A stretch of DNA of 64,000 nucleotides, taken from Diphasiastrum complanatum. Lineage: Eukaryota; Streptophyta; Lycopodiopsida; Lycopodiales; Lycopodiaceae. The translations under genes were made by a program, and so were the position numbers. Of the stretch, positions 3,669-60,670 are shown piece by piece (position 1 is the stretch's first letter; the number at the start of each line of letters is the position of its first letter). Location: positions 12,664,486-12,728,485 of the forward strand of contig CM055107.1 in NCBI GenBank assembly GCA_029204225.1. Reading direction: 5' to 3'. The notes beneath the pieces are model-generated. The model saw nothing but the letters and a program-made list of their open reading frames with translations. It was not told where the DNA came from and searched no databases.

Positions 3669-4480
3669 ATGACAAACATGGGAGAGTCCATTTTGAGTGA
3701 AAGTAGCAAATTGGACGGGATTTCCAACTATGCAGTGTGGAAATTTATGATGAAAAACATACTGATGGAGAAAGAACGTGTGGGAAGTCGTCACAGGTGA
3801 TGAGAGAAGGCCGCCAAATGAAGCGGATATCAAAGTGTTCGACAAAAAGATGAGGAAAGCTTTGACCTTCATTAACTTGTCAGTGAAGGATCACATCATT
3901 ACCCACATATGTGATGTTGTGACACCCAGACAGGCATGGGATGTGCTAAAGGAGCAGTTCGAGACGTCAAACCCGTCAAGAATCATGTTTCTGAAGTCAA
4001 AGTTGAATAGTGCCCGCATGGAACAAGGAGAGCACATTCGGACATACATGACCAAAATCAAGACAATGAGGGATGAACTACATTCTATTGGTGAGCGCAT
4101 ACGTGATGTGGAGCTGGTGCACAATGCATTCTGCGGCATTGCAGAACCCTATCAGATGTTTGTTGAGCGGAATGGCATCAAGAGAAAGGTTGCCAACCTT
4201 TGACGAGCTCATAGGAATCTTGATGTAGGAAGAGCAATAGTGAGAAATGGTGAAAGCTAGACGTCAAAATACTGACGACACGCCAAGGACAAGGGCAAGA
4301 AGAAGTCTAATCAACAATTTGCCAAGTCTCAGGAGGATGTGGGATCTTCCAGTAAGCCAAAAAGAAAGGCAAGTGCTTCCATTGTGGTAAAAAGGGCCCA
4401 TTGGAAAAGTGAATGTCGCAAATTCTTGGTAGAACAAGGCAAGGGAAAACCAAAGCAAGCAGGTAACCTTGTCGATGAGG
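3669..4480 (+). pseudogene. Copia Gag (frameshifted)
   Basis: The frame opens at ATG 3669 with the usual copia Gag start (a KLDG-type motif, then a Trp-containing YAVWK segment). One base appears to be lost near 3778, moving the frame to 3778-4203. That segment has the UBN2-type Gag helical region with its AWDVL and KIKTMRDEL motifs. The frame shifts again near 4200, just after a KRKV segment. A CX2CX4HX4C zinc knuckle at about 4366-4415 is split by a one-base insertion after the second Cys, so no intact nucleocapsid is made. The first ATG was chosen because similarity to copia Gag begins there. Confidence 0.85.
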
Positions 4481-4760
4481 GTGAGATTGAAGACTCTAGC
4501 ATCCTCATATCTGCATTATCATCTAATCAAGATGATCAAGCGTGGTATATTGACTTGGGAGCCACAAGACACATGACAAGTAACAAGAATTGGTTCAGTA
4601 GCATGAAAGTGTTGGATAATGGAAACATCCGTTTCACAGGCAAATGGCGAGGTGCGCAAGATCAAGGGGATAGGCACTGTTTCATTCCAACTACCTGATG
4701 GAAAAAGCAGGATGATCAGGGAGGTACTTTATGTACCAGGTTTGAAGAAATCTACTTTCT
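4480..4760 (+). pseudogene. Copia aspartic protease, active site altered
   Basis: The frame containing WYIDLGATRHMT at about 4543-4578 is the retropepsin of the polyprotein. The expected catalytic triplet Asp-Ser-Gly reads Asp-Leu-Gly here (codon TTG at 4555-4557, consistent with TCG to TTG). The reading frame is lost around 4640, and the downstream protease strand motif (VLYVPGLK) is in another frame at about 4720-4750. The enzyme would normally cleave Gag-Pol. This copy is inactive on two counts. Confidence 0.85.
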
Positions 4761-4818
4761 GTTGGAGTCATTACTAATCAAAATTTGAAAGTAGAATTCG
4801 CCCCATGATCGTTGCTTT

Positions 4819-5720
4819 GTGAAGGATGTGAACCAAAAGTTCAAAGTTATTGTGGATGGAGTAAGGGAGCCCAATACAAAATTGTACAGGTTGAATGCTA
4901 CAATCAAGGGGCAACATGGACTTGTATCGTCCATTCCATCGCAAACTGAGTTGTGGCATAAGAGGCTTGGTCACTTGAACTTGGGAAGTCTCAATTTGAT
5001 GAGGAAATTGGAGATGGTAATAGGATTGCCTACCATTGAAGACCACTTGAAATCGATGTGCGAATCATGTGTATATGGGAAGCAACATCGAGAGAAGCTC
5101 AATAAAGGGGGTGTTGCAAGAAGAAAGAACATCCTAGATTTAATCCACACAGATTTATGCGGGCCTATGAGGACCATGTCCTTAGGTAAAGCCTTCTATT
5201 TCATCACCTTTATTGATGATATGTCACGAAAGACGTGGATCTACTTCTTGAAGAAGAAATCAGATGCATTTGACAACTTCAAGAGCTTCAAAGCATTGGT
5301 CGAAAATCAAACAGGTAGGAAGATCAAAGTCCTAAGATCAGATAGTGGAGGTGAGTACAAGTCTAGTGACTTCAGTGATCTTTGTGATCAATGTGGGATT
5401 AAGAGACAATTTACGCAAGCTCATACTCCTGCTTTCAATGCTGTAGCTGAGTGCATGAATTGTACAATTGTGGAAAGTGCCAGATCTATGCTAGCTGAGA
5501 TGAAACTACCAAAGGATTTTGGTCAGAAGCATGCAGTACGGCAGTCTATCTTCAAAATAGAAGTCCTACCATTGCCATACCAAAGATAACACCTGAGGAA
5601 ACATTCACGAAGAAGAAGCCAAAGGTGAACCACTTGCGAATCTTTGGATGCAAGGCCTTTGTACACATTCCTAAGGAAGAGAGATGTAAACTTGATGTGA
5701 AAGCTATTCAATTGCATATT
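4819..5720 (+). pseudogene. Copia integrase (GAG-pre-integrase plus rve core)
   Basis: An open stretch of 256 codons contains the His/Cys zinc-binding region (ELWHKRLGH, then CESCVYGK). The catalytic core has Asp in HTDLCGP (5152-5154), Asp in RSDSGGEY (5341-5343) and Glu in AVAECMN (5449-5451). All three catalytic acids are therefore present, although the usual NGVAERMN context has changed. A frameshift near 5545 moves the rest of the domain to another frame, ending at a stop near 5731. Integrase would join element DNA to the chromosome. Confidence 0.9.
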
Positions 5721-9993: not shown

Positions 9994-10223
9994 GTACGAT
10001 TTGCTCCCCTAGCAACTACCAGAGTTAGAGAATTGGGGTCCCTAGGCTTGGGAGCATCTCGAGGCCCCATCCACACCGTCTCTAGATTGGGGTATGGAAT
10101 TGTGATAGCATTCATTCATTATGTATAACAAATGACTGGATTGACTTCATTATTGAACGAGACCTATTGTTTTTCATGGAGACTCATGAGAGTCAGGATC
10201 ACGGGCTACCCATATTTCTAGAG

Positions 10224-11456
10224 TATAGATGGGATTCAATATATAGACCTGAGACTAGATCAACTAGTGGCCGAGGTTTTGGAGGGATAGCTTGTCTCTA
10301 TAGAGAGCCCCTTCATCAGATAGTTGAGTTTATTAGACACAATGAGCACGCATGGTACATCTGAATTCGTATTATTGGATGGGATATCGGCTTGGACAGA
10401 GACAAATCTTCATTGCTGCATGCTACTTTCCTCTGGAGTATTTCTCTTTTGTTGAGGAGGTCGGATCACCTTACATGGACTTCTTTCCATAACAAATGCA
10501 TAGGTCCATAGTAGCTAGAATATATCTCATAACTCTGATGAGAGCCTTTCAATGTATAAATCCAAAATTAGTTATAAATTGACTTAAGGAACTGACAACA
10601 AAAGCTACGTCTAGTGTGGTATAGATCATTGTGTACATAAGTGAATATGTTATCGAATGACAAGGGTACTCACACATCTACTCCTTCTCCTCTATCGTTT
10701 GAGGACACTGGTCCTTCAACAATTTGAGTCCTGGGCCCATTGGTGAATAAGACCACTTACAACTCATCAAATTATTTTCAATCAACATGTTGTAAATGTA
10801 TATTTGCTGAGTAATACCACTTCCTGTCTCTTTAGATTTGAATACCTAGACAATATTGAGCTTCTCCAAATCTATCATGTCAAATTCTGAAGACAACATT
10901 CGTTTCTTACCTTTTATTAGTTCGACACTATCACTAAAAGAAGTGTGTCGTCTATGTACAAAGTGACAATAATAGAAAAATGTTGCACTGACTTGAAGTA
11001 GACATCCTCTAGAACCATGCTCTAGTAGATTGCTTCAAGTTGTGAAGTGTTTTATGGAGTTTACATACATGATTGTTTTTGACTTCGATAATGTAACCTT
11101 CAAATTGTATCATGTGGATATCTTCTTCAATAACTCTATTCAACTAAGCTGTCTATATATCCATTTGATGTATCTCCAGATCGGCTGCAGCAACATATGA
11201 CAGTAGAAGTCCGATTGAAGAATGCTTACCTATTGAACTAAAGATCTCAGTACAGTCGACATTCTGTATCTAGAAATTCCTTCTGCAACAAGTCAAGCTT
11301 TTCTCCAATCATGCTTCTATCCACCTTGTATTTGATTTTGAATATCCATCTGCAATCAGCTAAATTTTTGTTGGTAGATAATTTGACAATAGTACATGTT
11401 TGGTTCTTGATGACAAATGGATACTCTCTATCCATGGCTTAACTCCATAGATCGGA
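10224..11456 (-). pseudogene. Ty1/copia RT-RNase H remnant, copy 2
   Basis: This is homologous to 771-1960. The open piece at 11247-11435 (minus) contains the RT start, with a YPFVIKNQT...VKL segment and WIFKIKYKVD. The RNase H-proximal part lies at about 10500-10700. Small deletions relative to copy 1 remove the frame. The linker at 11467-11826 belongs upstream of it in the pol order. Confidence 0.65.
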
Positions 11457-11856
11457 GTTGAGCTGACTAGGTGCTTTTGCGAGAAAAGTCGACTCTCGAA
11501 TAAGACAAGTTGAAGATTCTTTGATATACCTTTGTAGGTAGAGACTCTCTTTGTCGATCTTCTGGGAGATAAGTGAGATTGATCGTTTTGTTGCTACTGA
11601 GCTGCAAGATCTTCTTCTGATTCGCTATTAACAAGCTGTTTGTCTGGTGTAGACGAGTTTGGACCTTTGATAGGACCAATGGAGTCGGAAACATGAATGT
11701 TCGATACTTCAGGAGTGGCCGACAATTTGACTGTATGAGCTTCGCCCTTGTCTTTGAGATCGATAAATTGATCTTCGATAAAGATGATATCTCAACTGGA
11801 GAATATCTTCGATTCGATAGGATCATACAGCTTGTAAGCTTTATCTGAAGTAGTAT
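11447..11856 (-). pseudogene. Ty1/copia pol linker fragment, copy 2
   Basis: A 119-codon minus-strand frame with the same Ser/Asn-rich linker as 337-770. It sits directly upstream (minus sense) of the RT start at 11247-11435, which gives the family assignment. Confidence 0.55.
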
Positions 11857-13020
11857 AGATGGGATTCAATATACAGACCTGAGACTAGATCAACTAGTGG
11901 CCGTAGTTTGGAGGGGTAGCTTGTCTCTACAGAGAGCCCCTTCATCAGACAGTTGAGTTTATCAGACACGATGAGCACGCATGGTACATCTAAATTCGTA
12001 TTATTGGATGGGATATTGTCTTGGAGTGGGACACATCTTCATTGTTGCATGCTACTTTCCTCTGGAGTATGCCTCTTTTGTTGAGGAGGTCGAATCACCT
12101 TACATGGGCTTCTTTCCATAACATTTGCATAGGTCCATAATAGCTCGAATATATCTCATAACTCTGATGAGAGCCTTCCAATGTATAAATCCAGAATTAG
12201 TTATCAATTGACTTAAGGAACTGACAACAAAATCTATGTCTAGTGTGGTATAGATCATTGTGTACATAAGTGAATCTATTATCGAATGACAAGGGTACTC
12301 ACACATCTGCTCCTTCTCCTCTATCATCTGAGGACACTAATCCTTCAACAATTTGAGTCCTAGGCCCATTGGTAAGTGAGCTCACTTACAACTCGTCAAA
12401 CTATTTTTAATCAACATGTTGTAAATGTATATTTGCTGAGTAATATAGATTAACTTATGCTTCCTGTCTCTTTAGATTTGAATACCTAGATAGTATTGAG
12501 CTTCGCCAAATCTATCATGTCGAATTCTGAAGACAACATTCATTTCTTATCTTTTATTAGTTTGACACTATTACTGAAAGAGAAGTGTGCCGTCTATGTA
12601 CAAAGTGACAATAATAAAAAAAATGTTGCACTGACTTGAAGTCGACATCCTCTAGAACCATGCTCTAGTATTGCTTCAAGTTGTAAAGAGTTTTATGGAG
12701 TTTACATACATGATTGTTTTTGCTTTAGATAATGGAACCTTCGAATTGTATCATGTAGACATCTTCCTCGATAACCCCATTCAACTAAGCTATCTATTCA
12801 TCCATTTGATATATTTATAGATCGGCTGCAGCAACATATGACAATAGAAGTTTGATTGAAGAATGCTTAACTATTGAGCTGAAGGTCTCAGTACAGTCAA
12901 CATTCTATATCTAGAAATTCCTATTGCAACAAGTCGAGCTTTTCTCCAATCATGTTTCTATCCACCTTGTATTTGATGCAATTAACTACATTTTTGCTGG
13001 CAGGTTATTTGACAATAGTA
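11857..13020 (-). pseudogene. Ty1/copia RT-RNase H remnant, copy 3
   Basis: Third copy of the block at 771-1960. The open minus-strand segment 12100-12327 is the best preserved. It has the SLMYTMIYTTLDIDFVV motif of the RT/RNase H boundary, followed by HWKALIRVMRYIRA, the usual HW-R-RYL segment. The join at 11850-11860 to the copy-2 linker is shared with 765-775, so the linker-plus-block arrangement was duplicated as a unit. It ends at about 13020 against LTR sequence of a different element. Confidence 0.7.
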
Positions 13021-13312
13021 AATATGGTAGACCAGCCCTTCAGTGTTCAAGATTATCGGTCACGCCGTGATTTAATTCCATGTCAAGGCCTGTTTGTGAC
13101 TAATTACCTTGAGAGGACCCAGACACTCTAATTGAAACATATGGAATATTGTATGTTTGTGTGACGTATATAGGCAGGAGGACTGCATGAAGAGATGTGA
13201 TCTATTTATAGTTGACCTGCATGGAGATTGCATGGTTTCATGCACAAGACTCTACTCTCTATATAATGAGGTGGAGATTCTCCCGTCGACATATTGGGTT
13301 TTGGTTACCAGT
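13021..13312 (+). repeat. LTR fragment of a gypsy-type element
   Basis: This aligns nearly base for base with 18046-18337. It contains a CTATATAATG TATA-like box at about 13259. The left end is cut: the first ~38 bp present in the other copy are missing, and copia sequence abuts directly. Confidence 0.8.
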
Positions 13313-27307: not shown

Positions 27308-30300
27308 TGAGCTTGAGTGTTTCTACTAGCTATGGCTACCCCAAGCAAGCTGCTCCAGCTCTCTCCAATACAAGCGGCTAACTGAGGCTGTTACAAGCTC
27401 AGGAGAAATTGGTTAAAAACCTAGACGGGACACTTACAAATGCCCCAAGGAGGAGCCAAGTCTAGATGCGGAAAAGCCACAAGTTCTAAACTAAACTGTC
27501 ATGACACCTGGATCACCATCATGTTTTAGTGTTGATTGGGGCCTCAATGATTAGGTTTGCACCCCTATAAATGCAACCCTGAGCATATGCTAATCCTTCT
27601 TCTGTAAGTTTACTGCTGCAAACGGGTTCCTTGAATAATAAATATTTTGCTCATGTTGGCTCTGAAATTTAAGCCTTGAGAATCAGAGTTGTCAACTCCA
27701 CTGGTGGAAATCAACAAAGAAGTGTGTTAGAATTTCCTCTGCATTTCCACTCTCTTCAATTCCAAAAGTTTTGCTTTTTCCCTAGCGCAAAAGTCTCTCG
27801 GATTTCAAGCAAAGCAGGCTTCTGTAATGGCGACATCTCTAAGTAGGCAATTCTACAATCTTCTCCCTCTTTGTCGTCACCTCGCTCCAATTCAGATAGA
27901 ATTCTGTAGCAATATCTTTCAGTTTCATAAATTTTAGCTTCATTTCTATGATAGTATGGTACACAGATTTTTCTAAAAGTTTAACATTCAAGAAGGTTCT
28001 CTTAATATCACACTCGATCTTCTCCGTGCCTTGGGCTGCAATTGATAGGGTAGCTCTGATTAAGTCAAACTTTACCAACAGTGCAAAGACTCATCATAAT
28101 TGTAGCCTTTGGCAACCAATCTGGCTTTGTGCCTATCAATCGTGCCATCAAATTTCAGCAAAACCTGGTTTTGTTACTGCCGCAGAACCAACGATGGAGG
28201 AGATCTAAAAGGCAGCAGAGACCTCCAAATCAATATAGCCCAGCAACAGGTGGCCACGCCTGCCTAGCAGTGACAACAAAGCATTGTGATGATCCCATAA
28301 GTAACCTTGAGCCAAAGACTATCTAATATCGAACTCAACTATGGTTGAGAAGTACACGTTCCTTATCCAGAATCAGACCTGGACTCTAGGGAAGTCACCT
28401 CAATCGAGAAAAGCCATCAAATGCACATGGGTATCCACAAGACCAAGCAGGATGGTGCTCCATGAACAGATCAAATTCTCTTCATGTAGCTCAATACTAA
28501 ACTTGCTGAGAACCCAATTGAATCACTGGTAGACCAAATTGAGCTGATACTTATCTGTTTTCTTACGTTTAGTGTTTGGTTTTACGTTTTTATTTGCAAG
28601 ACATTGATTATTTCTATTCACAATGGCTATTTTACTCACTAGGTGGTAGGCCTCTACTGGAGGGCCACACCATTCTGGGATATGACTGCTTGAGTAGACT
28701 TAATCATGATGAAGGCTACACTAAAGAGCAAGGCAACAATCAAATAAAGTCCCTACTTACTCATCAAAAAATAAATTTATAAGATTTCAGAAGAAAAAGC
28801 TTATAATTCCAATTTCCCTTGAGTTTGTTGTATGACAATCATTGCTCTTCCTTAATCCATTGTTCCTGAGTGATGCCATATATGTGATTTATATTCATAA
28901 TACCTTGTGTATATCCATAAGCATGTAACTTTGTAGCTATGGTAGTTGTGTCACGCTAGTTTTGAAGAATGGCTTCAATTCCATGGTCCATACTAGAACC
29001 ATAAGAGGTGGTCCATAATGAATGATGCCTCCGGTTATGTATGGAAAACTTCATTGAGGTTAGAGACTTGAAGTCCATCGTAAAGAGCTCCACGTAGTAA
29101 GGAGTTGGTTGAGAACATTTTGGCTACAAGTCCATCTAGCTTTGCATATGGCTACCTTACTACCTGATTGACAGACTATTTCCCAAGAATCTAATATGTT
29201 GGCTTAAACCCTCGTACAACATATCTTATTTGCACAAAGTTCATACAAGAGCAACTATGTCACGTGCTAAAGCAAGTGCGATGTGCCGGTTTATGTTACT
29301 AGTTATATTAATGTGCTAGTTTCTAAACAGGTCTCCCTTACATTATTTCGTATGACTACTTGAGCAGTCAACACCAATTTCATCCGCATAAAGTTGTTAT
29401 TGCCACTATCCTTGTGAATGTTATTATTTGTAAATCAGACTGAAACACATTTGTCTGTCCTAGAGCTATGAGGCCTCGCGGAATCAACACTGTCAATATG
29501 AAGGCATTGCAAATGCATGGATTTCTTAGCCTTTTGACAAAGTCGCCCATTTTCATACATGAGCTTGATACGCATCTTACAACTTTTAAAACATAAACCT
29601 TTCAAAGGTACAGTAAGTTACAGGAAACATCTTGGCGACAAAACTTAGCAAGAACAGTCAAAATACTCGTCCATTGCCTCCCAGAGTCTCCCGAAACCCT
29701 CTAAAGAATGACAATCGATCAAGTGAGCTGTTTCGAACAGCGCTAAGAACAGCAAGTTCCGCTTTAGCCTGAAGGTGCAATGTCCTTTATCATTATTCAT
29801 ACCAATTTAAAAAATGCCAAGCACTTGTGACTGCATATGAAGATCTTCCTTTTGATGATGGTTATATCCATGTGATGTAACAGCTAGAAGTTGATTCTAT
29901 CTGAAATCTTAGCAAATAAAATCAAAGTTTCTGTTACTAACTAATGACTTGTAAGGAAAATGAACCGTCACTGGTGCCATCCACATCAGATTGCTAAATT
30001 GAAGTAAAACTTCCAAAATAAATGGCTCAGAGCTCAAACTTCGAAACAATTTGTGGATGCTTTCACAAACCACACATTGAAAAGACAGCAGTTGTGAGCG
30101 GTTCTTCAGCACCATCCAACCCTATCTCGTAATAAGACAAGTCAGTTTACTCGAAAGCGATACCCTTGCAAATCCAAACAAAAGATGATACCTTTCTTGG
30201 CTTTTCCTGATGGTTTGGGAGGCGCCATGGCAACCACTCTCAACCCATAGCTCCCACTGGAGTTTGCTATTCTCAATGTGGCACTAGTAGCAGTAGTAGC

Positions 30301-30474
30301 TCTTAGAGTTTGGCCACTCAAACTGCTACTCATGCTGCCGCAATTGCATGACGATGGAGGAGATGAAACTGATAGTGTGGTTGGGAGATGATGATGATGC
30401 CTGTTGCTGTTAGCGATGGCGCTTGTGGGTTGTGCATTGCGCAACGACAAGGAGGGTGCTGCTGCCGTTGCCAT
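24882..30474 (-). CDS. PRPL11: Plastid 50S ribosomal protein L11 (uL11c), nuclear gene, 4 exons
   Basis: Exons on the minus strand are 30192-30474, 25896-26068, 25266-25329 and 24882-25090 (stop TAA 24882-24884). They total 729 nt, or 242 aa. Every junction obeys GT-AG and phases join without a break. Exon 1 encodes an initiator Met (30474), a Ser/Thr/Ala-rich plastid transit peptide of about 80 residues with a His4 run, then [11 protein letters not shown]. Exon 2 carries the L11 N-terminal domain with its proline-rich [13 protein letters not shown] loop. Exon 3 has [12 protein letters not shown]. Exon 4 has the RNA-binding domain ending [13 protein letters not shown]. In the family, L11 binds 23S rRNA at the GTPase-associated centre and assists elongation factors in plastid translation. 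An in-frame upstream Met at 30633 exists, but MATAAAP is the usual plastid-protein start. The gene appears intact. Confidence 0.96.
26143..26210. repeat. (GA)n microsatellite near L11 exon 2 acceptor
   Basis: The repeat has (GA)n on the plus strand and (CT)n in the L11 transcript, about 75-140 nt upstream of the exon 2 3' splice site. Two C interruptions occur at about 26161 and 26165. Confidence 0.95.
27241..27304. repeat. (CT)n microsatellite in L11 intron 1
   Basis: About 31 CT units on the plus strand, read as GA in the L11 transcript. The Glu-Arg repeat frame across it is an artefact. Confidence 0.95.
27950..28078 (-). pseudogene. Copia reverse transcriptase scrap
   Basis: The minus-strand frame has a TLSIAAQ...[11 protein letters not shown] segment resembling the copia RT motif that normally reads IAA...DVKTAFLNG. 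It lies inside L11 intron 1, antiparallel to the scrap at 28200-28520. Confidence 0.45.
28200..28520 (+). pseudogene. Copia RT N-terminal scrap
   Basis: The plus-strand frame includes [12 protein letters not shown]...RKAIKCTWV, the usual start of copia RT (an NQTW...WV segment). Upstream in-frame stops and no downstream RT motifs show it is a short remnant inside L11 intron 1. Confidence 0.55.
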
Positions 30475-30760
30475 AGCTGAATGAGCCACAGACACAAACC
30501 GTAGAAGGAAAAAAAGGAGAGAAGAAGCCGAAGATAAGAGGAAGGAAGAGAGAAGGGCTGGCCAAATGAGAAATGCTCTAGGCCTAGAGAAGTAAAGAGA
30601 GTAAAATTTGTCTTTGGACTGATCTGGCCTCACGATCTCTCAAGGGTTTTGGAGCTTTAGAGGTGCCTTCCAAAGGGGAGAGAGTGCCTTGCAAAGGGGA
30701 GACAGTGTGTTGCTAACTCTTGACTACAAGATGGTTCATCCTTTTCCCCTTATCCAAAGG
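30475..30760 (-). promoter_or_regulatory. L11 5' UTR / promoter-proximal region
   Basis: On the minus strand the 80 nt before the ATG are strongly pyrimidine-rich (CTTC/TTCC runs), as in many plant ribosomal-protein leaders. An AAAACCCTTGAG segment resembling a degenerate telo-box lies about 170 nt upstream (30640-30650). I see no clear TATA box, which is common for plastid ribosomal protein genes. Transcription start is not determined. Confidence 0.45.
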
Positions 30761-33720: not shown

Positions 33721-34606
<886 letters not shown>

Positions 34607-36784: not shown

Positions 36785-36835
<51 letters not shown>

Positions 36836-37490
36836 TCATTGCTTTGGGCAAATTATTAAAAAAAATTGGAATTGATCATAAATTTTTATCACAAGAATAA
36901 TTGATCATATCACATTGTAACATCTAGGGAACACATGAACTAATATATTTCCTTATTATAATATTTCATAGTAGGCATATTAATTCACATGGGGAGACTC
37001 TTCATAGCCTACATGTTTTCTATTCTTAGTAGGCATCACATTATTTTCAAGAGAAGTTTATGGTTGATAGCTTTGCAACAACATGTAAAGAAGTTTTAAC
37101 TAGCCTTCTTGATTGACTGCATAATTTTCTTACAACACACACTAGCTAATTAAAGTATTTGGCTATCATTTTGATGACTGGCTTTATGTCCTACAATCCA
37201 TAACAAATAGGTTTCTTTATGGAATTCAAGACTATGGCCACAATATTAGCCCATAAAATACTAATAATTTCCAATTTCTAAGCAACTTTTGCAAAAGATA
37301 AACCTTTTCTAAGATGAACTACACAAAATTAAAAACTTCATTTACTTGCAAATCATGAGATATAATCGCATACACATATAGTGCCAAATCCCTCACACTT
37401 ATTTACTCATAGCTATGTACGAACCACAAATATCCCCAACATAAGCTAGTCGACATACATAAACTTCTCGATACTCTTACATGTCACAAG
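36411..37490 (-). repeat. Right inverted-repeat arm
   Basis: Reverse complement of 33721-34606. It carries an extra segment at about 36490-36830 with four short TTTTTGCCGGCAAA-type repeats (36665-36735) and (TG)n at 36786-36830, absent from the left arm. Confidence 0.8.
36786..36830. repeat. (TG)n microsatellite
   Basis: About 22 TG units inside the right arm. Confidence 0.95.
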
Positions 37491-39234
37491 AAATTGTTGT
37501 AGTCATTTGGGCTACCAGCGAGGGCATATAGACTGCATCATTCTAAATATGCCACTCAACAACTTGAAAGGCATGCCTAAAGAGAGTCCATTTATATTCT
37601 TGCATTCCAATATCGACAATGCACTCGATGTTTGCATTAGGAGCAATAATGTTTGTCGTCTACAAATGCAGTGTATGAAGAGTTGTAAGGAGTCCACAAA
37701 AAATTGTAGGGAGTGAGATGAAAATCAAACCACAACACTATTTAGATTTTTTGAAAGTTGGAAAAATGCATAGAGTTTTTCTACTAAAAGGCTATTCATG
37801 TAATTTAAAGAAGAATATGCACAAAGCATACTACCATATATCACATATCCAAGCACTAGCAAGTACTCACAAACTAATTCAAATATTATAGCATATAGAC
37901 TTGATGTAATCACCCACAAATTGAAACTGGACTTACTAAAAAGACGTAAAATAATTGGTGGGTAACATGGTTACAATTTACTATTTTGATACCTCTACGA
38001 TGCTACCAATCCCCATAGGTCCACGAGCGCAATGGATCTTAATGAAATAAATTGAGTAGTTCCATAGTGTGACGTCGCCAGAATAATTATCTCCCAAGGT
38101 GGGTACAATGAGCAAGATTTGGAGCACAACAACAAGTACGAGGAGACATTTTTGTTGGTGGAGTGGGTTAATATCAATGCCTTTATTCTTCATCTTATAT
38201 TTTCCTACACAATGCACACAAATTATAACCAATTCTCAGATCTTACAGATTCCACACACACAATACTCTATAAATAACACTACACATAAACGAATCAAAA
38301 AACAATTGGACAACAACAGAACAACAATCCCTTGCAGGAAAATTTCTCTATATAAATTAGCATAACCTCCCAAAAATCCACAACCTGTAACCACAATGTT
38401 AGAGGCAACAAGGGGATGAAATACAATTCTAGAAACAGTGGAACACAATGCTAATGATCAAACAACGCATAAATAGCAATGATAATGCAGTTCACAAGAG
38501 AATCGAGAGTGATAGAAAGGAGAGGCACTAAGCATAACAACTTCTCCTCCTTCCCTCGTCACCTCTCTCTGTCTCCTCCTACATGTGAATAAATATTATG
38601 TAGGAGGAGCTTCCTTCTAATGTCTACGAGGGTGTGAAGGGCTGTGCCTTTTCATGGATGGGCACCACTTATCTTCATTAATAGGTCCAAATCTTAAAAG
38701 CCAAGCCCTTAATTTGTCTTTAACTACTAAAAGTGGCTTCAACCTACAATTACAAAGTTGGGCTGGCACCTGACAAACCAAGAAATCAGGGGAATATGCT
38801 TCTTTAGTAGATATAAGTCAAACATAAATTTATAAATAGACACATTTTTAGTGAAAGTGCAACCGGCCATAATGGGCCATTTAGGTGTCAATTTAATGCG
38901 GTTCCGCATTGGCATAATGGCGTGCGGTGATGATTTTGCTTCAAAAATAGCATATAAAAAGGCCTTTTTCCTTGCAAACAAATTTTTTTTAACATACTAA
39001 GTGAATGCACCACCCCTGGCATGTTTGCTACCACCTTTGCCAGCCATACTGTGGCATTAGTCTATTTCTTATGTGCGAGTATTTGTCCATTGCTTGAAAG
39101 GGCACGAAAGTCTTTATATGTCACTAGAAAATGCATCACCCCTGATGCATTATGGCATGAATGCTACCAGTGAGTCTCCTACAAAGTCTTTGACATTTTA
39201 AATAATGCGCCAAAATGGCACATTACCTTCCATA
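37491..39234. other. Spacer, no recognised gene
   Basis: Several frames of 60-88 codons show no known domain. The segment 38510-38720 is pyrimidine/purine rich and may be repeat-derived, but no partner copy was found. Confidence 0.5.
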
Positions 39235-40870: not shown

Positions 40871-42210
<1,340 letters not shown>

Positions 42211-42955
42211 TGGGGCAAGGGAGATAGAAGAATGCGAACGGAAAAGAGAGCAGAATTATTGTGGAATAGCTCTCTTGTTCTAATCCACTGCTAAATGCAA
42301 AAATAGTCTAATAGACAGTTTATGCTAAATGTGATCACAACTTTAAGTATTCTGATTGCCCAACATGATCTTAAAAATTAATTCATACTCTAAAACAAGA
42401 GTACAGTCCACTAAAGAAATTAGAAATGATTTGTGTGTGGTACTACTGAAATCAGATTCAATGTGAAGTATAGTCCTAAAATAAATGGAAGAGCAGTATG
42501 ATAACGCGAGCTCCTCAGGCATCAAAGACAACCATCGTTTGATCAAAAACTGAGGAGTCGTAGACGTCCGTGTTCTGATCAGAGTGAATAAACAAGCGCG
42601 ATCAAACAGCAATGAAAGTGCATTCAATCACAACAAGCATTCATCTACGTTGTACACAGATAAAAGCAAGTTGCTGCTATATTACACTGAAGCACAATAC
42701 AAATAGCAAATACAACCAAAAATTACGGCGTAATTGGGAGGCTCAAATAATGTGTCTCATGGACGGAGCAACATGTAATATGTGCTTGGATGATCTATTT
42801 ATAGACTTCATCCGTGTATTAATTACATTGAATGCTTGTCACCTAATTAGGAAAGTTGTTGTACTTGGAAGTATATGGCTTCTGTGACAATTGTACACAA
42901 TATTTATGGTCAATAATTCAGCATCGTTGACGCGGACGAGGACGTCGCTGGAACA
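42211..42955 (-). repeat. 3' LTR of minus-strand copia element
   Basis: The first ~400 bp match 49156-49613. The LTR reads TG...CA in either direction (plus: TGGGGCAAGG to GCTGGAACA). On the minus strand it is preceded by a purine run AACGAGGAA, a plausible polypurine tract, and carries a TATA-like TCTATAAATAG at about 42793-42805. The length of 745 bp is inferred from these borders. Confidence 0.7.
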
Positions 42956-43099
42956 TTCCTCGTTTATTTTAGACGACCTTCGGGATTTTTCTCTCTCTCT
43001 TCGCATTTTTCGCAAGGAGCCGAAGGTGCGCTAAAAAAGACGGTGATGTCTTTAAAACAGTTTAATGCATGAAAATAGATGACCTTCGGGATTTTCTCT

Positions 43100-43630
43100 T
43101 GTCATGTACTTTTAGTACATCAGTGCTTATACATGCAAGATAATATCCAATGTAAGCTTTGTAGGCCCAAAAGGAGCTATTAGCCTTACGAACAAAGCGG
43201 TTCTCTCTTTAGGCCCTTTAAAGTAATTAATAAGGATAATAGGCCAACAAGGGCCCAATGTAGTTTGAATAATGCCTAACAAGGGCTAACTATCCCTCAA
43301 GATAGTTAAGTTAAGTTAAGTAAGAGCATTGTCTATAACTAGGCAAGAGACATCAATTTGTGAATCTTTTGGCTCATTTGAAAGTGAGAGATTCTAGCTT
43401 TCTTGTGAATGTGAGCCATAGGGATCTCCATTGCTAGGTCTCATGTGTCCTATCCACATGAATCAATGCTCCATTTCCATTGGTTGTACTCTTCCTTTTA
43501 TTGCTAATGTGATTCCATTGTGATCTCCATGTTTCTAGCTTTCTGTGGATATCTTGAATGCTTTCTACTTTTCTTGCTCTTAGCTTTACTTCCATTGTGA
43601 TTGCTATTTGCTTAGATTTGGCACATGACA
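43100..43630 (+). repeat. 5' LTR of gene-carrying element
   Basis: 531 bp with perfect 8-bp inverted ends TGTCATGT and ACATGACA. The first ~185 bp are repeated at 47047-47230. Confidence 0.85.
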
Positions 43631-43635
43631 TTTCT

Positions 43636-43647
43636 TGGTATCAGAGC
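43636..43647 (+). other. Primer binding site (initiator tRNA-Met)
   Basis: TGGTATCAGAGC, five bases after the 5' LTR end. Confidence 0.9.
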
Positions 43648-44370
43648 ATAGATCCATGATTCATGATGATTCTATGTGATTTCCATTAGATTTGATGAGT
43701 TTATTGTTTTTGTAGCTTTCTTTTTGCTATATTTTTAATTTTGAATTTTTCAGTTTTGTTTAGACGAATTTTTGACATTCAATTTTGAAGGCTGTCAAAA
43801 TAGGTGATTAGGATTTTGCTTTCACTTGATTTGAATTTTCCAAATTTGATCTGAGGTTTTATTTCTAGTTTCTTTCCATATGATTTTAGAACATTGTCTT
43901 AGGTTTGATCTGATCCATATGGCATGTCATTTGGATTAGTATCCAAAAAGTTGTGACAAATTTTGATTTGTAGCTCTAGTTTTGTTAGTTTTCTTTCTTC
44001 AAAATTCTCAACCCTGTTCTGTTGTTAATTTGACGTATTAAATCACATTCAATCAATGATTTGATCCATATTCTGATAGAGCTCGTTTTTAGCTTTTCAG
44101 AGGTACTGAGTTTGTGTGATTTGGATCAATATTGAGTAAGTTATGATCAAATTTGTGGAGATGGGTCAGAACTGCCAGAATTTTGAAATTTTTTTGTGGA
44201 TTTTTTCAAGTGAGAGAGAAGCACTTCAATATTTCAGCTTTGGAGTTTTGTTTCTCTTGTAAATATTTTTCGAATTCTTCATTTTGAAGTTTTATTTTTT
44301 TAAAAAAGAAGAAACGAAACCTAACCCTACCTACCTACAGCCCTAACGCAACCTAGCCTAGCCTAACCCT

Positions 44371-44374
<4 letters not shown>

Positions 44375-44415
<41 letters not shown>
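44375..44415. repeat. (CT)n microsatellite
   Basis: About 20 CT units at the 5' edge of the captured-fragment cluster. It follows a CTAACCCTA-like telomere-type segment at 44320-44371. Confidence 0.95.
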
Positions 44416-44417
<2 letters not shown>

Positions 44418-44419
44418 GT

Positions 44420-44600
44420 AGGCGGAGATCGCGATCCACTGGGCCAGTGACATCCAAAGCCCGAGCCCTTCTATCATTCCCCTCTTCAATCCCATACTCC
44501 ACAGACTCGCCTTCCCTCAGAGATCGAAAGCCATCAATTGTTCCATCTACTACAAATTTCTGCACATCCATATCTCCGACTAAAGGTTCAGTCTGGATTT
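44420..44600 (-). pseudogene. Captured cold-shock-domain fragment (antisense)
   Basis: The minus-strand frame encodes DGFRSLREGESVEYGIEEG followed by ARALDVTGP, which is the C-terminal half of a plant cold-shock domain (family wording GFRSL-EGE-VE-...-A-DVTGP). The first half with the RNA-binding KGFGFI/FVH motifs is absent or replaced. The frame runs into Glu-Arg translation of the CT tract, so it is not a gene in its present form. In the intact family the domain binds RNA and single-stranded DNA. Confidence 0.65.
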
Positions 44601-44650
44601 GGATAATTATCTGCGCGGATGTGTTGCTGACAGTCATAATTTTATGACTG

Positions 44651-44905
44651 TTGAGTAAACTCGAGGATGAAAAGCATCTAAATCAGAAAAATAATCATGG
44701 TGAAAATCATGAGGATTGGAAAGATATTGTTCTAAGAGGTGGTTCGTTGAAGGAAGTGGATCTCGATCAGGGCGTGAACGGCTGGGCCTCTCCTCTTGGC
44801 AGTGTGTTCATGGTCCGTGGCTGCAACTATTTTGTGAAGAAGCTCAAATCGCCTTCAGGAGACTCGATATTGAAACTTCTTGGCGTAGATTGGCTTGAAT
44901 CTGAT
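44651..44905 (+). pseudogene. Captured DUF1336 (EDR2-like C-terminal) fragment
   Basis: The plus-strand frame contains VNGWASPLGSVFMVRGCNYF then KSPSGDSILKLLGVDWLESD. This matches the start of DUF1336, the C-terminal domain of ENHANCED DISEASE RESISTANCE 2-like plant proteins (usual wording WA-P-G--F-VRG-NY----K-P-G---L---VDW). About 60 residues of a domain near 200 residues long are present. The rest is replaced by antisense sequence of another gene, so this is a fragment. Confidence 0.7.
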
Positions 44906-45060
44906 GCGAGTACCTGTTTTGCCACCACATCTGCTCCCAGTGCCTTCAACTCCTCAATCAAATCATCACGCCTCACAATGTTGATTGTTTTGATGCCCCA
45001 ATGTTTTGCAAGCTGAATGGTTTGCCTTATAGACTCTTCCACAGCTTTCAAGTCCTGGAA
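44900..45060 (-). pseudogene. Captured enoyl-reductase (MECR-like) fragment (antisense)
   Basis: The minus-strand frame encodes TIQLAKHWGIKTINIVR then LIEELKALGADVV. This is the nucleotide-binding strand-helix-strand of the mitochondrial 2-enoyl-thioester reductase branch of zinc-type alcohol dehydrogenases (usual wording QLA---GI-TIN--R...L---GAD-V). The usual glycine motif before QLA is not preserved. The fragment is about 50 residues of a ~360-residue enzyme. It abuts the DUF1336 piece in opposite orientation. Confidence 0.6.
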
Positions 45061-45232
45061 CGGGCGCCCGCTGTTTGAAGTCGAAGGACTGAAGATCCAC
45101 ACTTCATCTTCTCTCACTTCCTCCAACTCCTTCGGTTGAGATTGGCTTCGGTTATGTCTTTTCTCTCTCTACCGCCCTCTTTCTCTCTCCGTCGGTTACC
45201 TTGTCTCTCTCTCTCTCCTCGCGACTTCGGCT

Positions 45233-46740
45233 ATGAGCAACACGACTCATATGGAGACTCTTTGGGCTATGATGAAAACTATTGTGACCAAAATAAAAAC
45301 CATGAGCCATACCAATCAAATCAATCTAATATTGATGGCGGTTTTTATAGTAGTGATAGTGATGACGCTATATTCACGACAATCAAAACATTATCGCAAT
45401 TCACAAGGTGATAAATCACCAGGGAACATTGGAACAACGAGCACAACAATCTATAGCAGCCAGAGGTGTGCCAACGAATGTTCATCAAAATGTCCAACAA
45501 ACAGGTGAAGCTTCAAGGACCCGACATTTTGAGGATGATGAACAATCTGATAGTGGAAGTCAAGACTCAAATCAAGGAGTGCACATTGATATTGATCCCA
45601 AAGGAACAGTCAACATTGGGAATTTGCTACAAACATGCCTTGGGAATCAAAATGGTAGTGATCAAGAGGAAATGTCTCGTATGAAAGATCCAATGCAGGA
45701 AACGAATTCAAATGAATCTGATGATTCTTCATCAAGATTATCAGAGGATGAACCAGAAGTGCAATTTGATGAGGAAAAGCAGTTACCAATGACGGAAAAG
45801 CCTATTCAACAGATGGATCAGCCAATTTCATCAACAGCTCTTGATTTCCCATTGAATTCACAGAAAATGGACAATCAACATTTATGCAGTGCTATAGAAT
45901 GTACACAACTTTGGCAACATAAATGTAATTCTCAATTTGAATCGACCCAAAAAATTCCAATTGTAAATACAATGTCAATGCAAGGACATCGAAAATCAAC
46001 TGAGGACAACAAACATGATGCGGAGGATTATGACAATATTTTTGTTTTCAATATTGATCTTCAATTGAGCAAGACAAGGGCCAATTCAGGCAAAAAAGTT
46101 GTCAATGGGACAAATCACTCAAGGACCCTATCTTCCTTGAGATCACCAGAATTATCACATCACATTCAACCAGAAAACTTATCTGAAACATCTTGTGAAA
46201 TAGGATTAACAGACAAGGATACAACTGATCTATATGAATGTTTCACATTCAATATAGAGTGCACAACGAAATGTGACGAAACTTGTATTATACAAGCTGG
46301 AAATTGTCCTAGCTATGAGATGGGACAAACAATCAAAGATCCATTATATCACAGTTTGTGGTTCAAAATATTCGAAATGTCAATTTTTTGAACATGATGA
46401 TCTAATCTACGAAAGATTCTTCGTAGAGGCTTTGAGTGAAAGGGAAATTAATACTCTTTGCAAGCATCTCATTCACTCAATATTCTTGGAAATGAATGTC
46501 CATTCAGAATATCGATTGTCATTTCCAGAGATCAATCAAAGCATCTTGGTTCCTATATTGAAGATTAAATATGCCAATAGTTCCTTCATGCAGGATCTTC
46601 ACAATTCAGATGCAAGGCTTGTGGTTATCATTGAAGCATTTGGATTGAACAACAAAGTGACTACCAAACAACATGACAAAATCTTCAGCCCAGCAAAGCT
46701 GGATACAATGCCAAAATACGATCCTAAAGGAATTGGATAG
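45233..46740 (+). CDS. Unrecognised long frame in gene-carrying LTR element
   Basis: The main open stretch is 45408-46391 (327 codons if opened at GTG 45408). A preceding frame with an Asp/Asn/Tyr-rich segment ends at 45411, and a following frame (46273-46740) contains YERFFVEALSEREINTLCKHL, seen in part as FVEALSEREI. The frames probably formed one ORF of about 450-500 codons before two small indels near 45408 and 46380. It is acidic and rich in Ser, Asp, Glu, Gln and Asn (EDDEQSDSGSQDSNQG), with Cys pairs near 46250-46300 (ECTTKCDETC). No known Gag, Pol or host domain was recognised. It could be a divergent Gag or another captured gene. Confidence 0.5.
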
Positions 46741-47046
46741 ATCATCCAATTTGTCACGATGCCGAAGAAGCAGACAAAAGAGGATATTGCAATTTGGGTT
46801 ACAATAAGCAATATGGTGCTTCATCAACCTCTTTTTTGACCATCAGTTTTTTCCTCCATGGGAACAAGGAATACAGTCTGAAGCTAGCAAAATGGATTCA
46901 ATTCGATAGCTTTGGATCTGTAATGGGGCAATAAATTATTATTTTTTGAACGACACACCCTTAGTCATAACTACTTAACCAAGGCGATCCAGCTAATCAG
47001 ACAAGCGTCTTCATTTTTGAGGACAAAAATGTTTAAGTAGCGGGAG

Positions 47047-47230
47047 TGTCATGTACTTTTAGTACATCAGTGCTTACACATGCAAGATAATATCCAATGT
47101 AAGCTTTGTAGGCCCAAACGAAGCTATTAGCCTTAAGAACAAGGCGGTTCCCTCTTTAGGCCCTCCAAAGTAATTAATAAGGATAATAGGCCAACAAGGG
47201 CCCAATGTAGTTTGAATAATACTTAACAAG
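47047..47230 (+). repeat. 3' LTR (truncated) of gene-carrying element
   Basis: This matches the first ~185 bp of the 5' LTR at roughly 92-95% by eye. Similarity stops at 47230, where unrelated sequence beginning TGTTGCGGAAGC starts. Confidence 0.85.
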
Positions 47231-47658
47231 TGTTGCGGAAGCTTTTTCGTTTCGTGTTTCTCTCTTCTGATTCGCAAACAATTTTCTATCTTTGAATTTT
47301 CTTTTCGTGCGGAAGCTCTTACGGGATCCCAGACACTCGACTACACATCACATAGCATATTTTATTCTAGCAATCAAGAGACACAGCACAAGGCCAAGAG
47401 ATACACGAAATAGAGCGACTATATTGTCAGTTTGGTTTTAGAGCTCTGCTCGTTGGCAGACTTTCATGCACAACTATGGTATTTTGATTTCTTACTCTAT
47501 TTGCTACGTCTCTCTCTGTTTCTTACAGATCTCTATAAAATTTTCATCACTTTTTTTTTCTTTTTTTTTGGTTATGATCCAGAGAGGATCGTTTATACCT
47601 CCACTGTGTGGAGTTTACAAGATAGCCAAATGTAGAATCACAAGACTAGTTAACGTAA
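47231..47658. other. Unassigned sequence between nested elements
   Basis: It begins with TG at the break of the truncated LTR and holds a T-rich run at 47550-47570. It may be another LTR fragment, but no partner copy was found. Confidence 0.4.
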
Positions 47659-48345
47659 TCAAGAGTGCTTCCCATAGATGCATGATTCACAAAAGAAAGA
47701 TTTCCTATCTAATGAAGAAGAGAAACTCAGTACATCAACTAAATTATTACAAGGCATATAAGAAAGTGATCTTGTATTCACGTGTCCAGATCGACTATGC
47801 CACAGAACAGCACTATCGTTTACATTTTCATTAGAGATACTAGCTAATGCAACTGAATTAGAGAGTATGTAAAAATTTTCGAATCTAGTGCATGTAGTCA
47901 GAGTAGTATCTTCCTCGAGTATTGTACACTGCTCAGATGAGAAAGTAACAGTGTAGCCCTCATCAGTTATCTTAGAGACTGATAATAGGTTCTTTGACAA
48001 CTGAGGAACATGAAGGATGTTAGGAACACAAATGGACAGATCGTTGTTGAAGCTGATCTTCACTGCTCCTTTGCCTTCCATGCGTATGGTGCTAGAATCT
48101 CCGAGGTAGATAAATTGGTCTTTGCTGTAAGTTGTGTACTCCGTAAACCATTCCTTGCCACAGGTCATGTGTTGGGTAGCGCCGCTGTCCAGGTTCCAGC
48201 TATCACAGTCTTCGCTGCTGCTGTAAGCCATTAACAAGTGTGTTTCTGCTCCTTGAATTCCGCCATGTTGGAGGAGTCTGGCTGCTACTGTTGTTGCTAT
48301 TTCTTTGCCTTGTTGTAAATCCTGATGCGACACTCCTTGATGTCA
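47659..48345 (-). pseudogene. Copia protease and GAG-pre-integrase domain
   Basis: The minus-strand frame of 224 codons has the retropepsin site WNLDSGATQHMT (about 48163-48200) with the catalytic Asp-Ser-Gly intact. It continues with LHVPQLSKNLLSVSKI and the pre-integrase zinc region LWHSRSGHVN...CESCIYGK. It stops at about 47660, where unrelated sequence begins, so the integrase core and RT are gone. A frameshift separates it from the zinc knuckle upstream. Confidence 0.9.
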
Positions 48346-49109
48346 TGATTAGCACTTTTGCAATATTTGCAGAAAAGCTTCTTACGCGATCCACCATGCT
48401 CACCTTGAGTGTGAGGCTTCTATTGTTTTTGCTGCACTTGATTCTTACCCTTGGAATAGTCTTTTTTCTTGGTGTATAGAGCCATGGATTTGTCTTTGAT
48501 GGATAGGCTACTAGTCTTTCTCCGCATTTCTTCTTGAAGAAGATGACCGATCACCTTTTGAAGAGTGAGGTCGGGTTGTGTGGAGATCATCACCACAAAG
48601 TGCTCATAGGACTTTGGAAGAGAAGAAAGCAAGATCATAACGGCATCATCATCTTGAATAGAACATCCTATAGTTAATAACTGATCTAACAGGGACTTGA
48701 AGCTGTTGATGTGAGAAGTGATGGCAGTAGAATCAGACATGCTAAGAGTAAAAAACTTCCTTCTAAGATGTAATCTTGTCGTTACATCGTGAGTCTCATA
48801 AAGACTTGATAACAAGTCCAATGCTTCCTTAGAGGTTTTGCACGTGCTAACATGAGATATTTGGGAGTCGGCCAGATTGAGCATGATACATGTTAGGGCC
48901 CTCTGATCTTTGATCCTCCAGGCCTTTGCTTGATTACCATGTTTCAGTTTCAGGTCTACACCTTCTACTACATCCCAAAGATCTCTATCTATCAACATCA
49001 TTCTAAGTTTTAACTTCCAGATGTAGAAGTTAGAACCATTGAGCTTGTCAATGACTCTAGCTTCACTGAGTGATGAAGATGAAAAGCTACCTATATACAA
49101 ATAGAACAA
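48336..49109 (-). pseudogene. Copia Gag with CCHC knuckle, one in-frame stop
   Basis: The minus-strand frame of 229 codons starts near the Gag N-terminus (KLNGSNFYIWKLKLRMML, DLWDVVEG). It runs through the UBN2-type region (LLSSLYETHDV, LLSSLPKSYEHF) to a TAG at 48420-48422. The same frame continues past the TAG into CKYCKSANHDIKEC, the CX2CX4HX4C nucleocapsid knuckle (about 48336-48385). The start at 49109 lies 28 nt after the primer site, which fits a short leader. Apart from that stop, Gag is remarkably well preserved. Confidence 0.9.
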
Positions 49110-49137
49110 AGTTAATCTCTCGGTTTATTTGAGCTAC

Positions 49138-49149: not shown

Positions 49150-49155
49150 ATCTGA

Positions 49156-49767
<612 letters not shown>

Positions 49768-59639: not shown

Positions 59640-60290
59640 TTAATCAATTAATTAATTTTTTTTTGTACCAATCCTGAAAAAACGTGAAAAATCTCGAAAA
59701 CGAGAAATTTTTGAAAAACAAAACAATTAGAGAATCCTGAAAATTTAAAAGAAATTCCCAAAAACTGAAAATTATATCAACTTAAATAGCAAAAAGCAAA
59801 AATTCCGAATGTTGCTAAAGCCAAAAAATGTGAAGGTTTAGGGGCAAAACAAAAAATGCGCCAGTTGAGGGCTATGCCGAAAAAAATGACAGTTTAGGGC
59901 GATAGTGAAAAACAAAAAATGCGACGGTTTAAAAGCGAAAAATGCTAAGGTTTACAAAAAAGCAAAAAACTGAAAAATGAGGTTGGTTGAAAAAAACAAG
60001 AAAACTAATTTCTACAAGCATTCAAGAACCAAAACTCGAAAAAGCACAAAAAAAGCTCAAAAACGCACGAAGAAAACTAAAAACCGATCAAAAAAATCTC
60101 GGAAAAGCTAAAAATAAATGCGAAAAAACACGAAAAAAAAAACTCGAAAACGCACGAAAAAAGCTCGAAAACGCACGAAAAAAAATGCAAAAACACTCGA
60201 AAAAAAGAAGAAGCAAAGAAACCGAGAAATGTCTAGAAGAAGCTCAGAACGCGGTCGAAAAAACTCGAAAAAAATAGGACGCAATAGAGA
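59640..60290 (+). repeat. A-rich region with CTCGAAAACGCACGAAAAAA-type repeats
   Basis: A-rich DNA contains irregular repeats of AAAAATGCG/CGGTTTA words (59825-59955) and then of CTCGAAAACGCACGAAAAA-like units (60030-60200). The Lys/Arg-rich frames it yields look like repeat translation rather than a protein gene. Confidence 0.6.
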
Positions 60291-60299
60291 TTTTACATT

Positions 60300-60670
60300 G
60301 GCTGACCCGGTCGAGATGGGAACGGAATGTTTCGGTCGAGATTTGATGCTCAGACGCGGTCGAGATTTGAACGGAATGCACCGGACGAGATTTGAAGCTC
60401 AGACGCGGTCGAGATTTGAACGGAATGCTCCGGTCAAGATTTGAAGCTCAGACCCGGCCGAGATTTGAATGGAATACTCCGGTCGAGATTTAAAGCTCAG
60501 ACCCGGTCAAGATTTGAATGCCTTCTGGCTTGGTTGAGATTTGAAGGAGAGGTGCGAACGAGATTTCTCAGAGAGGGCGCGGTTGAGATTTCAAAAGAAT
60601 GCCCCGGTCGAGATTTTAAGTAGAGATGCGGGCGAGATCTAACTGAAATGCTTCGGTCGAGATCTGATGA
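60300..60670 (+). repeat. Minisatellite, ~25-bp units in dimers
   Basis: About 14 variants of a CGGTCGAGATTTGAA-centred unit spaced 22-27 bp. Two alternating forms (tail ...CGGAATGCTC and tail ...GCTCAGACG) make a ~50-bp higher-order repeat, clearest at 60334-60510. Units decay toward 60670. Confidence 0.85.

What the first reader, a model, noticed from the sequence alone, without database searches (positions are those of the whole stretch)
43100..47230. LTR element that carries pieces of three unrelated host genes in mixed orientation
Between well-formed LTR ends and a tRNA-Met primer site there is no recognisable Gag or Pol. Within about 700 bp lie an antisense cold-shock-domain piece, a sense DUF1336/EDR2-like piece and an antisense enoyl-reductase-like piece, end to end. 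This is the layout of a gene-transducing retroelement (maize Bs1 is the known precedent). Sense plus antisense fragments in one transcript could generate small RNAs against three parental genes.
Basis: partly seen in the sequence, partly recalled or inferred. Interest (0 to 1): 0.82.

Follow-up and report, generated by a model that had tools for sequence, protein, structure and literature searches.

The report
Broken retroelement with scrambled gene scraps
A decayed plant jumping gene carries short scraps of three ordinary genes, pasted in different directions; the scraps look real, but how they got there and whether they do anything could not be settled from this stretch alone.

Summary
A degenerate LTR element lies at 43100-47230. 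The 5' LTR is 43100-43630 (531 bp, TGTCATGT...ACATGACA), and a 12-base initiator-Met-type primer site starts at 43636. The 3' LTR is cut after 184 of 531 bp, so "well-formed LTR ends" is true on one side only. No Gag or Pol domain was found. In the leader lie three partial cellular coding pieces: half a cold-shock domain (antisense, about 44440-44547), the start of an EDR2_C domain (sense, about 44650-44912), and part of a zinc-type quinone/enoyl reductase (antisense, about 44914-45027). Independent searches back the two antisense pieces; EDR2_C rests on Pfam alone. "End to end" is too strong: two open antisense stretches are unassigned. No DNA-transposon ends were found, and the RNA shows no special fold. 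Maize Bs1 is the nearest precedent, but transduced genes are described as usually sense. Parental genes, spliced versus genomic origin, copy number and small RNAs could not be tested: the whole-genome search did not complete. The mosaic fits template-switching capture; I lean slightly to DNA gap repair over reverse transcription. Interest is moderate.

The parts
43100..43630 (+). 5' LTR, 531 bp, TGTCATGT...ACATGACA
43636..43647 (+). primer binding site TGGTATCAGAGC (initiator tRNA-Met type, recalled)
44367..44418 (+). TC-rich stretch with (TC)21 at 44374-44415, left of the mosaic; with 45175-45223 it forms an imperfect, low-complexity direct repeat ending CTCGCG
44440..44547 (-). C-terminal half of a cold-shock domain (profile positions 32-65 of 66)
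44548..44640 (-). unassigned open stretch joined in frame to the cold-shock piece; no PDB match for 44545-44640
44630..44651 (+). perfect 10-bp inverted repeat with 2-bp centre near the switch of orientation
44650..44912 (+). open stretch running into the first 41-46 residues of EDR2_C (profile 1-46 of 213, from 44783)
   Evidence: homology upstream of 44783 is recalled, not tested
44914..45027 (-). part of the nucleotide-binding half of a zinc-type quinone/enoyl reductase (ADH_zinc_N 6-41 of 129)
45028..45168 (-). unassigned open stretch in frame with the reductase piece; no plasmid match, three PDB hits at E 1.1-1.3
45366..46391 (+). 341-codon open frame of unknown kind, probably part of a longer frame broken by frameshifts (inferred)
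46258..46740 (+). 160-codon open frame, likely continuation in another frame; unknown family; model of 46366-46737 has pLDDT 37
47027..47046 (+). weak polypurine-tract-like stretch ending GCGGGAG before the 3' LTR
47047..47230 (+). 3' LTR, truncated (184 of 531 bp), 10 differences from the 5' LTR

Best explanation
A non-autonomous, now dead LTR element carries in its leader a patchwork of about 0.6-0.7 kb copied from at least three unrelated cellular genes. Shown: the element's structure, the three pieces, their orientations, and that each breaks off inside its domain on at least one side. Inferred: the patchwork was made by serial template switching while a gap in the element's DNA was repaired, each switch copying 100-260 bp of genic DNA in either orientation between TC-rich ends. 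Inferred also: the element is inert, and any transcription would start from the LTR or a neighbour.
For: Mixed orientation, with each piece cut inside its domain. A sharp reductase breakpoint at 45027: of the 80 loci kept, 74 align from query residue 8 and 6 from residue 11, and the query matches only 2 of 7 near-invariant bacterial columns upstream. A perfect inverted repeat near an orientation switch, one of five distinct complex ones in 64 kb. The far end of the reductase piece reads AAACAG|GTAC, like an unspliced exon end. A TC direct repeat brackets the mosaic. The locus is damaged elsewhere: the 3' LTR is cut, and no integrase was found beside the Copia frame that adjoins it. No transposon ends were found.
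Against: Filler DNA cited for maize is 1-131 bp and local (PMC2686159 passages); this is about 700 bp from apparently unlinked genes. The splice-like hexamer and the inverted repeat may be chance (about 6% for the latter). The TC repeat is low-complexity and barely beats shuffles (38 against a maximum of 34 in 200). No intron sequence was recognised inside a piece, which suits an mRNA origin as well.
Confidence: 0.4

Rival explanations
1. Retroviral-type transduction: cellular mRNAs were packaged and copied by template switching during reverse transcription, antisense pieces arising from switches during plus-strand synthesis; the chimera then integrated.
For: Position between primer site and 3' LTR; no intron recognised in the pieces; Bs1 precedent with three genes; a maize survey counts 425 LTR elements with gene fragments.
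Against: Two of three pieces are antisense, while transduced genes are described as usually sense. In that maize survey no LTR element held pieces of more than one standard nuclear gene under its conditions. No second copy is known (whole-genome search unanswered).
Confidence: 0.32
2. A gene-capturing DNA transposon (Helitron, Pack-MULE or CACTA) carrying several fragments inserted into the LTR element and lost its ends.
For: In a 22-Mb maize region 187 Helitrons, 9 MULEs and 5 CACTAs held gene fragments against 20 LTR elements. That such elements can carry several fragments in either orientation is recalled.
Against: Inverted flanks score no better than shuffles; none of the 5 Helitron-like 3' ends of the window lies in the element interior.
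Confidence: 0.15
3. An already shuffled chimeric pseudogene or antisense transcript was taken up in a single step.
For: A 113-codon antisense frame (44827-45168) runs open through the reductase piece into its neighbours.
Against: Open frames of that length can be chance; no free-standing chimera could be searched for.
Confidence: 0.1
4. Assembly chimera.
For: Neighbouring microsatellites and a perfect 130-bp tandem repeat at 49354-49614.
Against: Several separate joins within 700 bp between flanks of one element are hard to get by misassembly (inference); reads were not available.
Confidence: 0.03

Closest known systems
maize Bs1
   Same: LTR element with segments of three unrelated host genes (PMC13317346 section 4)
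   Different: Bs1 segments gave a chimeric gene that is transcribed and translated (their common sense orientation is recalled); here two of three are antisense, pieces are 100-260 bp, and no Gag is recognisable
maize LTR elements with gene fragments (PMC2774510, passages)
   Same: host gene fragments inside LTR elements
   Different: none of the 425 held more than one standard nuclear gene under that survey's conditions
Pack-MULEs and Helitrons
   Same: gene fragments inside a mobile element
   Different: no terminal inverted repeats or Helitron end found here
complex filler DNA of double-strand break repair (PMC2686159, passages)
   Same: mosaic of patches of different origin
   Different: this one is much longer than the 1-131 bp cited, and from apparently unlinked genes
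chimeric retropseudogenes of Magnaporthe made by LINE template jumps (PMC2104539, listing and abstract start only)
   Same: copies of different transcripts fused directly
   Different: LINE-made, in a fungus; no LTR element

Membership tests
LTR retrotransposon | pair of direct terminal repeats around an internal region | tested here: met
   184 bp at 94.6%
LTR retrotransposon | both LTRs complete with TG...CA ends | tested here: inconclusive
   5' LTR yes; 3' LTR cut at 184 of 531 bp, its CA end not seen
LTR retrotransposon | primer binding site next to the 5' LTR | tested here: met
   TGGTATCAGAGC at 43636, 5 bases after the LTR; tRNA identity recalled
LTR retrotransposon | polypurine tract before the 3' LTR | tested here: inconclusive
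   only a short GCGGGAG
LTR retrotransposon | target-site duplication | not testable with these tools
   3' end lost at 47230
autonomous LTR retrotransposon | gag and pol | tested here: not met
   six-frame Pfam scan of 43638-47045; single frames
Bs1-type gene-transducing retroelement | pieces of several unrelated host genes | tested here: met
   parental genes not identified
Bs1-type gene-transducing retroelement | pieces retro-copied from spliced mRNA | not testable with these tools
   no plant genes could be searched
Bs1-type gene-transducing retroelement | pieces in the sense of the element (usual for transduction, PMC7264820) | tested here: not met
   two of three antisense
Bs1-type gene-transducing retroelement | the chimera transposed (further copies) | not tested
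   The genome search did not complete; no other copy in the window
Pack-type or Helitron element | terminal inverted repeats, or CTRR end with hairpin | tested here: not met
   simple scans only

The most novel reading that the evidence does not exclude
A retro-mobile element family that assembles mosaics of several unrelated host genes in both orientations by alternating-strand template switching in the particle, so that its transcripts carry antisense segments against two parental genes.
Probability: 0.15. Interest if true: 0.7.

Novelty: new variant of a known kind. Interest (0 to 1): 0.42.

Why it matters
Capture of several genes by one LTR element looks rare: a maize survey found none among 425 elements with gene fragments under its conditions, though Bs1 is described elsewhere with three. 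A mixed-orientation case would show that capture is not limited to sense mRNA read-through. If copies share the mosaic, the strand-switching step becomes testable. If only this copy has it, the case shows how break repair can mimic transduction.

Tried and rejected
Hairpin source of small RNAs: the 721-nt region folds no better than shuffles. Nested Helitron, MULE or CACTA: no ends found with simple scans. Hidden Gag or Pol in the 341- and 160-codon frames: no family at E up to 1 in Pfam or NCBIfam; no PDB hit for the 341-codon frame (the 160-codon frame was not searched in PDB); the AlphaFold model of 46366-46737 was uninformative at pLDDT 37. More host pieces in the two unassigned stretches: 44545-44640 had no PDB match; 45028-45168 had no plasmid match, and the nearly identical query 45025-45168 had three PDB hits at E 1.1-1.3. 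LTR pattern in viral contigs: nothing. Set aside as chance: other weak Pfam hits of the element scan, best TetR_C_42 at 0.016; DUF4886 at 0.0032 in 47231-47699; FoxA and electron-transfer flavoprotein models at 0.15-0.18 in NCBIfam. The top PDB hit of the reductase piece, an antifreeze repeat (0.011 and 3.5e-4), sums weak matches of 2.5 to 4.7 bits each. In one search the query matches 2 of 7 near-invariant upstream columns (a serine and a glycine), with 13 query residues inserted after them; I treated this as chance but cannot exclude a diverged remnant. The Bs1 paper by DOI was not held.

Full report
WHAT IS THERE. The element starts at 43100 with TGTCATGT. Its 5' LTR ends at 43630 with ACATGACA (531 bp), and a primer site TGGTATCAGAGC follows at 43636. 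On the right, the repeat starts at 47047 and stops at 47230 after 184 bp, with 10 differences (8 transitions; K2P 0.057). At the 1.3e-8 rate quoted in a methods passage of PMC4290129 that is about 2.2 million years, but it rests on 35% of one LTR. The remaining 347 bp of the 3' LTR give no match elsewhere in the window at E 1e-3. That the source is a plant is inferred from the element types and from EDR2_C (recalled as a plant family).

SURROUNDINGS. The element lies between two copies (42207-42538 and 49152-49483, 91.6%) of a repeat. The right copy adjoins a minus-strand Copia gag (48420-49124, Retrotran_gag_2, 2.2e-43) and a frame with Pol_BBD and gag_pre-integrs (47659-48342). No integrase was found in 47231-47700 on the minus strand (three frames); 42539-43099 was scanned in one minus frame only. 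The Copia therefore looks truncated too, and the locus is nested and broken.

THE PIECES. Cold-shock domain, minus strand: Pfam 1.9e-4 for the open frame and 3.5e-5 for 44440-44547, below the curated cut-off (24.0 against 27 bits). The PDB search lists 30 hits, the best at 2.7e-5. NCBIfam's five cold-shock models score 0.0015 to 0.079. In plasmids 95 records match weakly, and all 8 listed are annotated cold-shock protein. EDR2_C, plus strand: 9.3e-11, 42.4 bits against a cut-off of 24.7, covering profile positions 1-46 of 213. It rests on Pfam alone; PDB and NCBIfam gave nothing. DUF1336 as an older name is recalled. Reductase, minus strand: Pfam 2.8e-4 and 4.5e-5 (below cut-off); a Caballeronia plasmid at 62% identity and 1e-4 (best of 27 records). 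In genome contigs 87 of 584 candidate stretches encode relatives; 80 were kept, the top one at 74% identity and 4e-12. All nine columns that are invariant in those 80 loci within the piece are kept in the query. The name MECR-like is compatible but not proven: mitochondrial enoyl reductases appear in PDB only at 0.057-0.064, NCBIfam has no reductase match, and names no functions.

IS IT MORE THAN CHANCE. Two neighbouring 4.9-kb stretches, scanned in six frames and listed to E 0.01, gave only Atrophin-1 and DUF3915, which I read as low-complexity matches. Their E-values reach 8.8e-5, so E near 1e-4 alone would not convince. In the element's own six-frame scan the cold-shock piece is 0.0032 and the reductase 0.0066. 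What carries these two is the agreement of independent searches, and that they are not simple sequence.

JOINS. The reductase homology begins at 45027: 74 of 80 loci align from query residue 8 and 6 from residue 11. Upstream the query matches 2 of 7 near-invariant columns, with 13 query residues inserted after them. It ends near 44914 at AAACAG|GTAC. A perfect inverted repeat at 44630-44651 lies between the antisense and sense blocks. After a filter for simple sequence (474 rows down to 6, one repeat counted twice) it is one of five distinct repeats with arms of 10 or more and a short loop in 64 kb; by my arithmetic, a chance placement of one of the five in the 721-bp mosaic is roughly 6%. A TC-rich direct repeat brackets the mosaic (score 38, maximum of 200 shuffles 34). 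Each is suggestive only.

THE REST OF THE INTERIOR. Frames of 341 and 160 codons fill 45366-46740 and look like one longer frame broken by frameshifts (inferred). No family was found.

MECHANISM. Shown: structure, pieces, orientation, breaking-off inside domains. Not shown: whether capture used RNA or DNA, whether the mosaic ever moved, whether it is transcribed. I lean to template-switching gap repair (0.4) over reverse-transcriptase template switching (0.32) because of the mixed orientation, the splice-like edge and the broken locus. The length of the mosaic against cited fillers (1-131 bp, PMC2686159 passages) argues the other way.

LITERATURE. PMC13317346: outline with abstract, and section 4. 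PMC7264820: parts 1 and 2 of 3 of the text. Passages only: PMC2774510, PMC2773423, PMC4290129, PMC3726574, PMC11963269, PMC4838847, PMC8277862, PMC2686159. Listing only: PMC2104539. In ten paper searches I saw no listed title or abstract start that describes an LTR element with several host genes in mixed orientation; most listed papers were not opened, and subscription papers, the Bs1 paper among them, are not held.

CHANGES AFTER CHECKING.

Noticed in passing
47659-49124, minus: Gag (Retrotran_gag_2 2.2e-43), Pol_BBD and gag_pre-integrs of a seemingly truncated Copia; copies of a repeat, probably its LTRs, flank the focal element (42207-42538, 49152-49483).
   Followed up: partly
47231: The sequence after the cut 3' LTR starts TGTTGCGGAAGC, like the end of yet another LTR element (resemblance recalled).
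   Followed up: no
30142-30639, minus: Open frame with a transit-peptide-like start and [13 protein letters not shown], resembling the first exon of a plastid ribosomal protein L11 gene (recalled; Pfam gave no L11 match).
   Followed up: partly
364-1945, 10222-11397, 11451-13023: Three copies (pairwise 88.8-91.6%) of a long repeat around Copia gag and integrase frames at 3766-5589: likely LTRs of a nested or tandem element.
   Followed up: no
49354-49614: Perfect 130-bp tandem duplication inside a repeat copy, directly followed by (TC)76.
   Followed up: no
60304-60518 and 60031-60207: 49-bp minisatellite (4.4 copies) beside an A-rich 21-45-bp repeat array.
   Followed up: no
33722-34429 and 36832-37492: Inverted repeat of about 700 bp at 85% identity, about 2.4 kb apart.
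   Followed up: no
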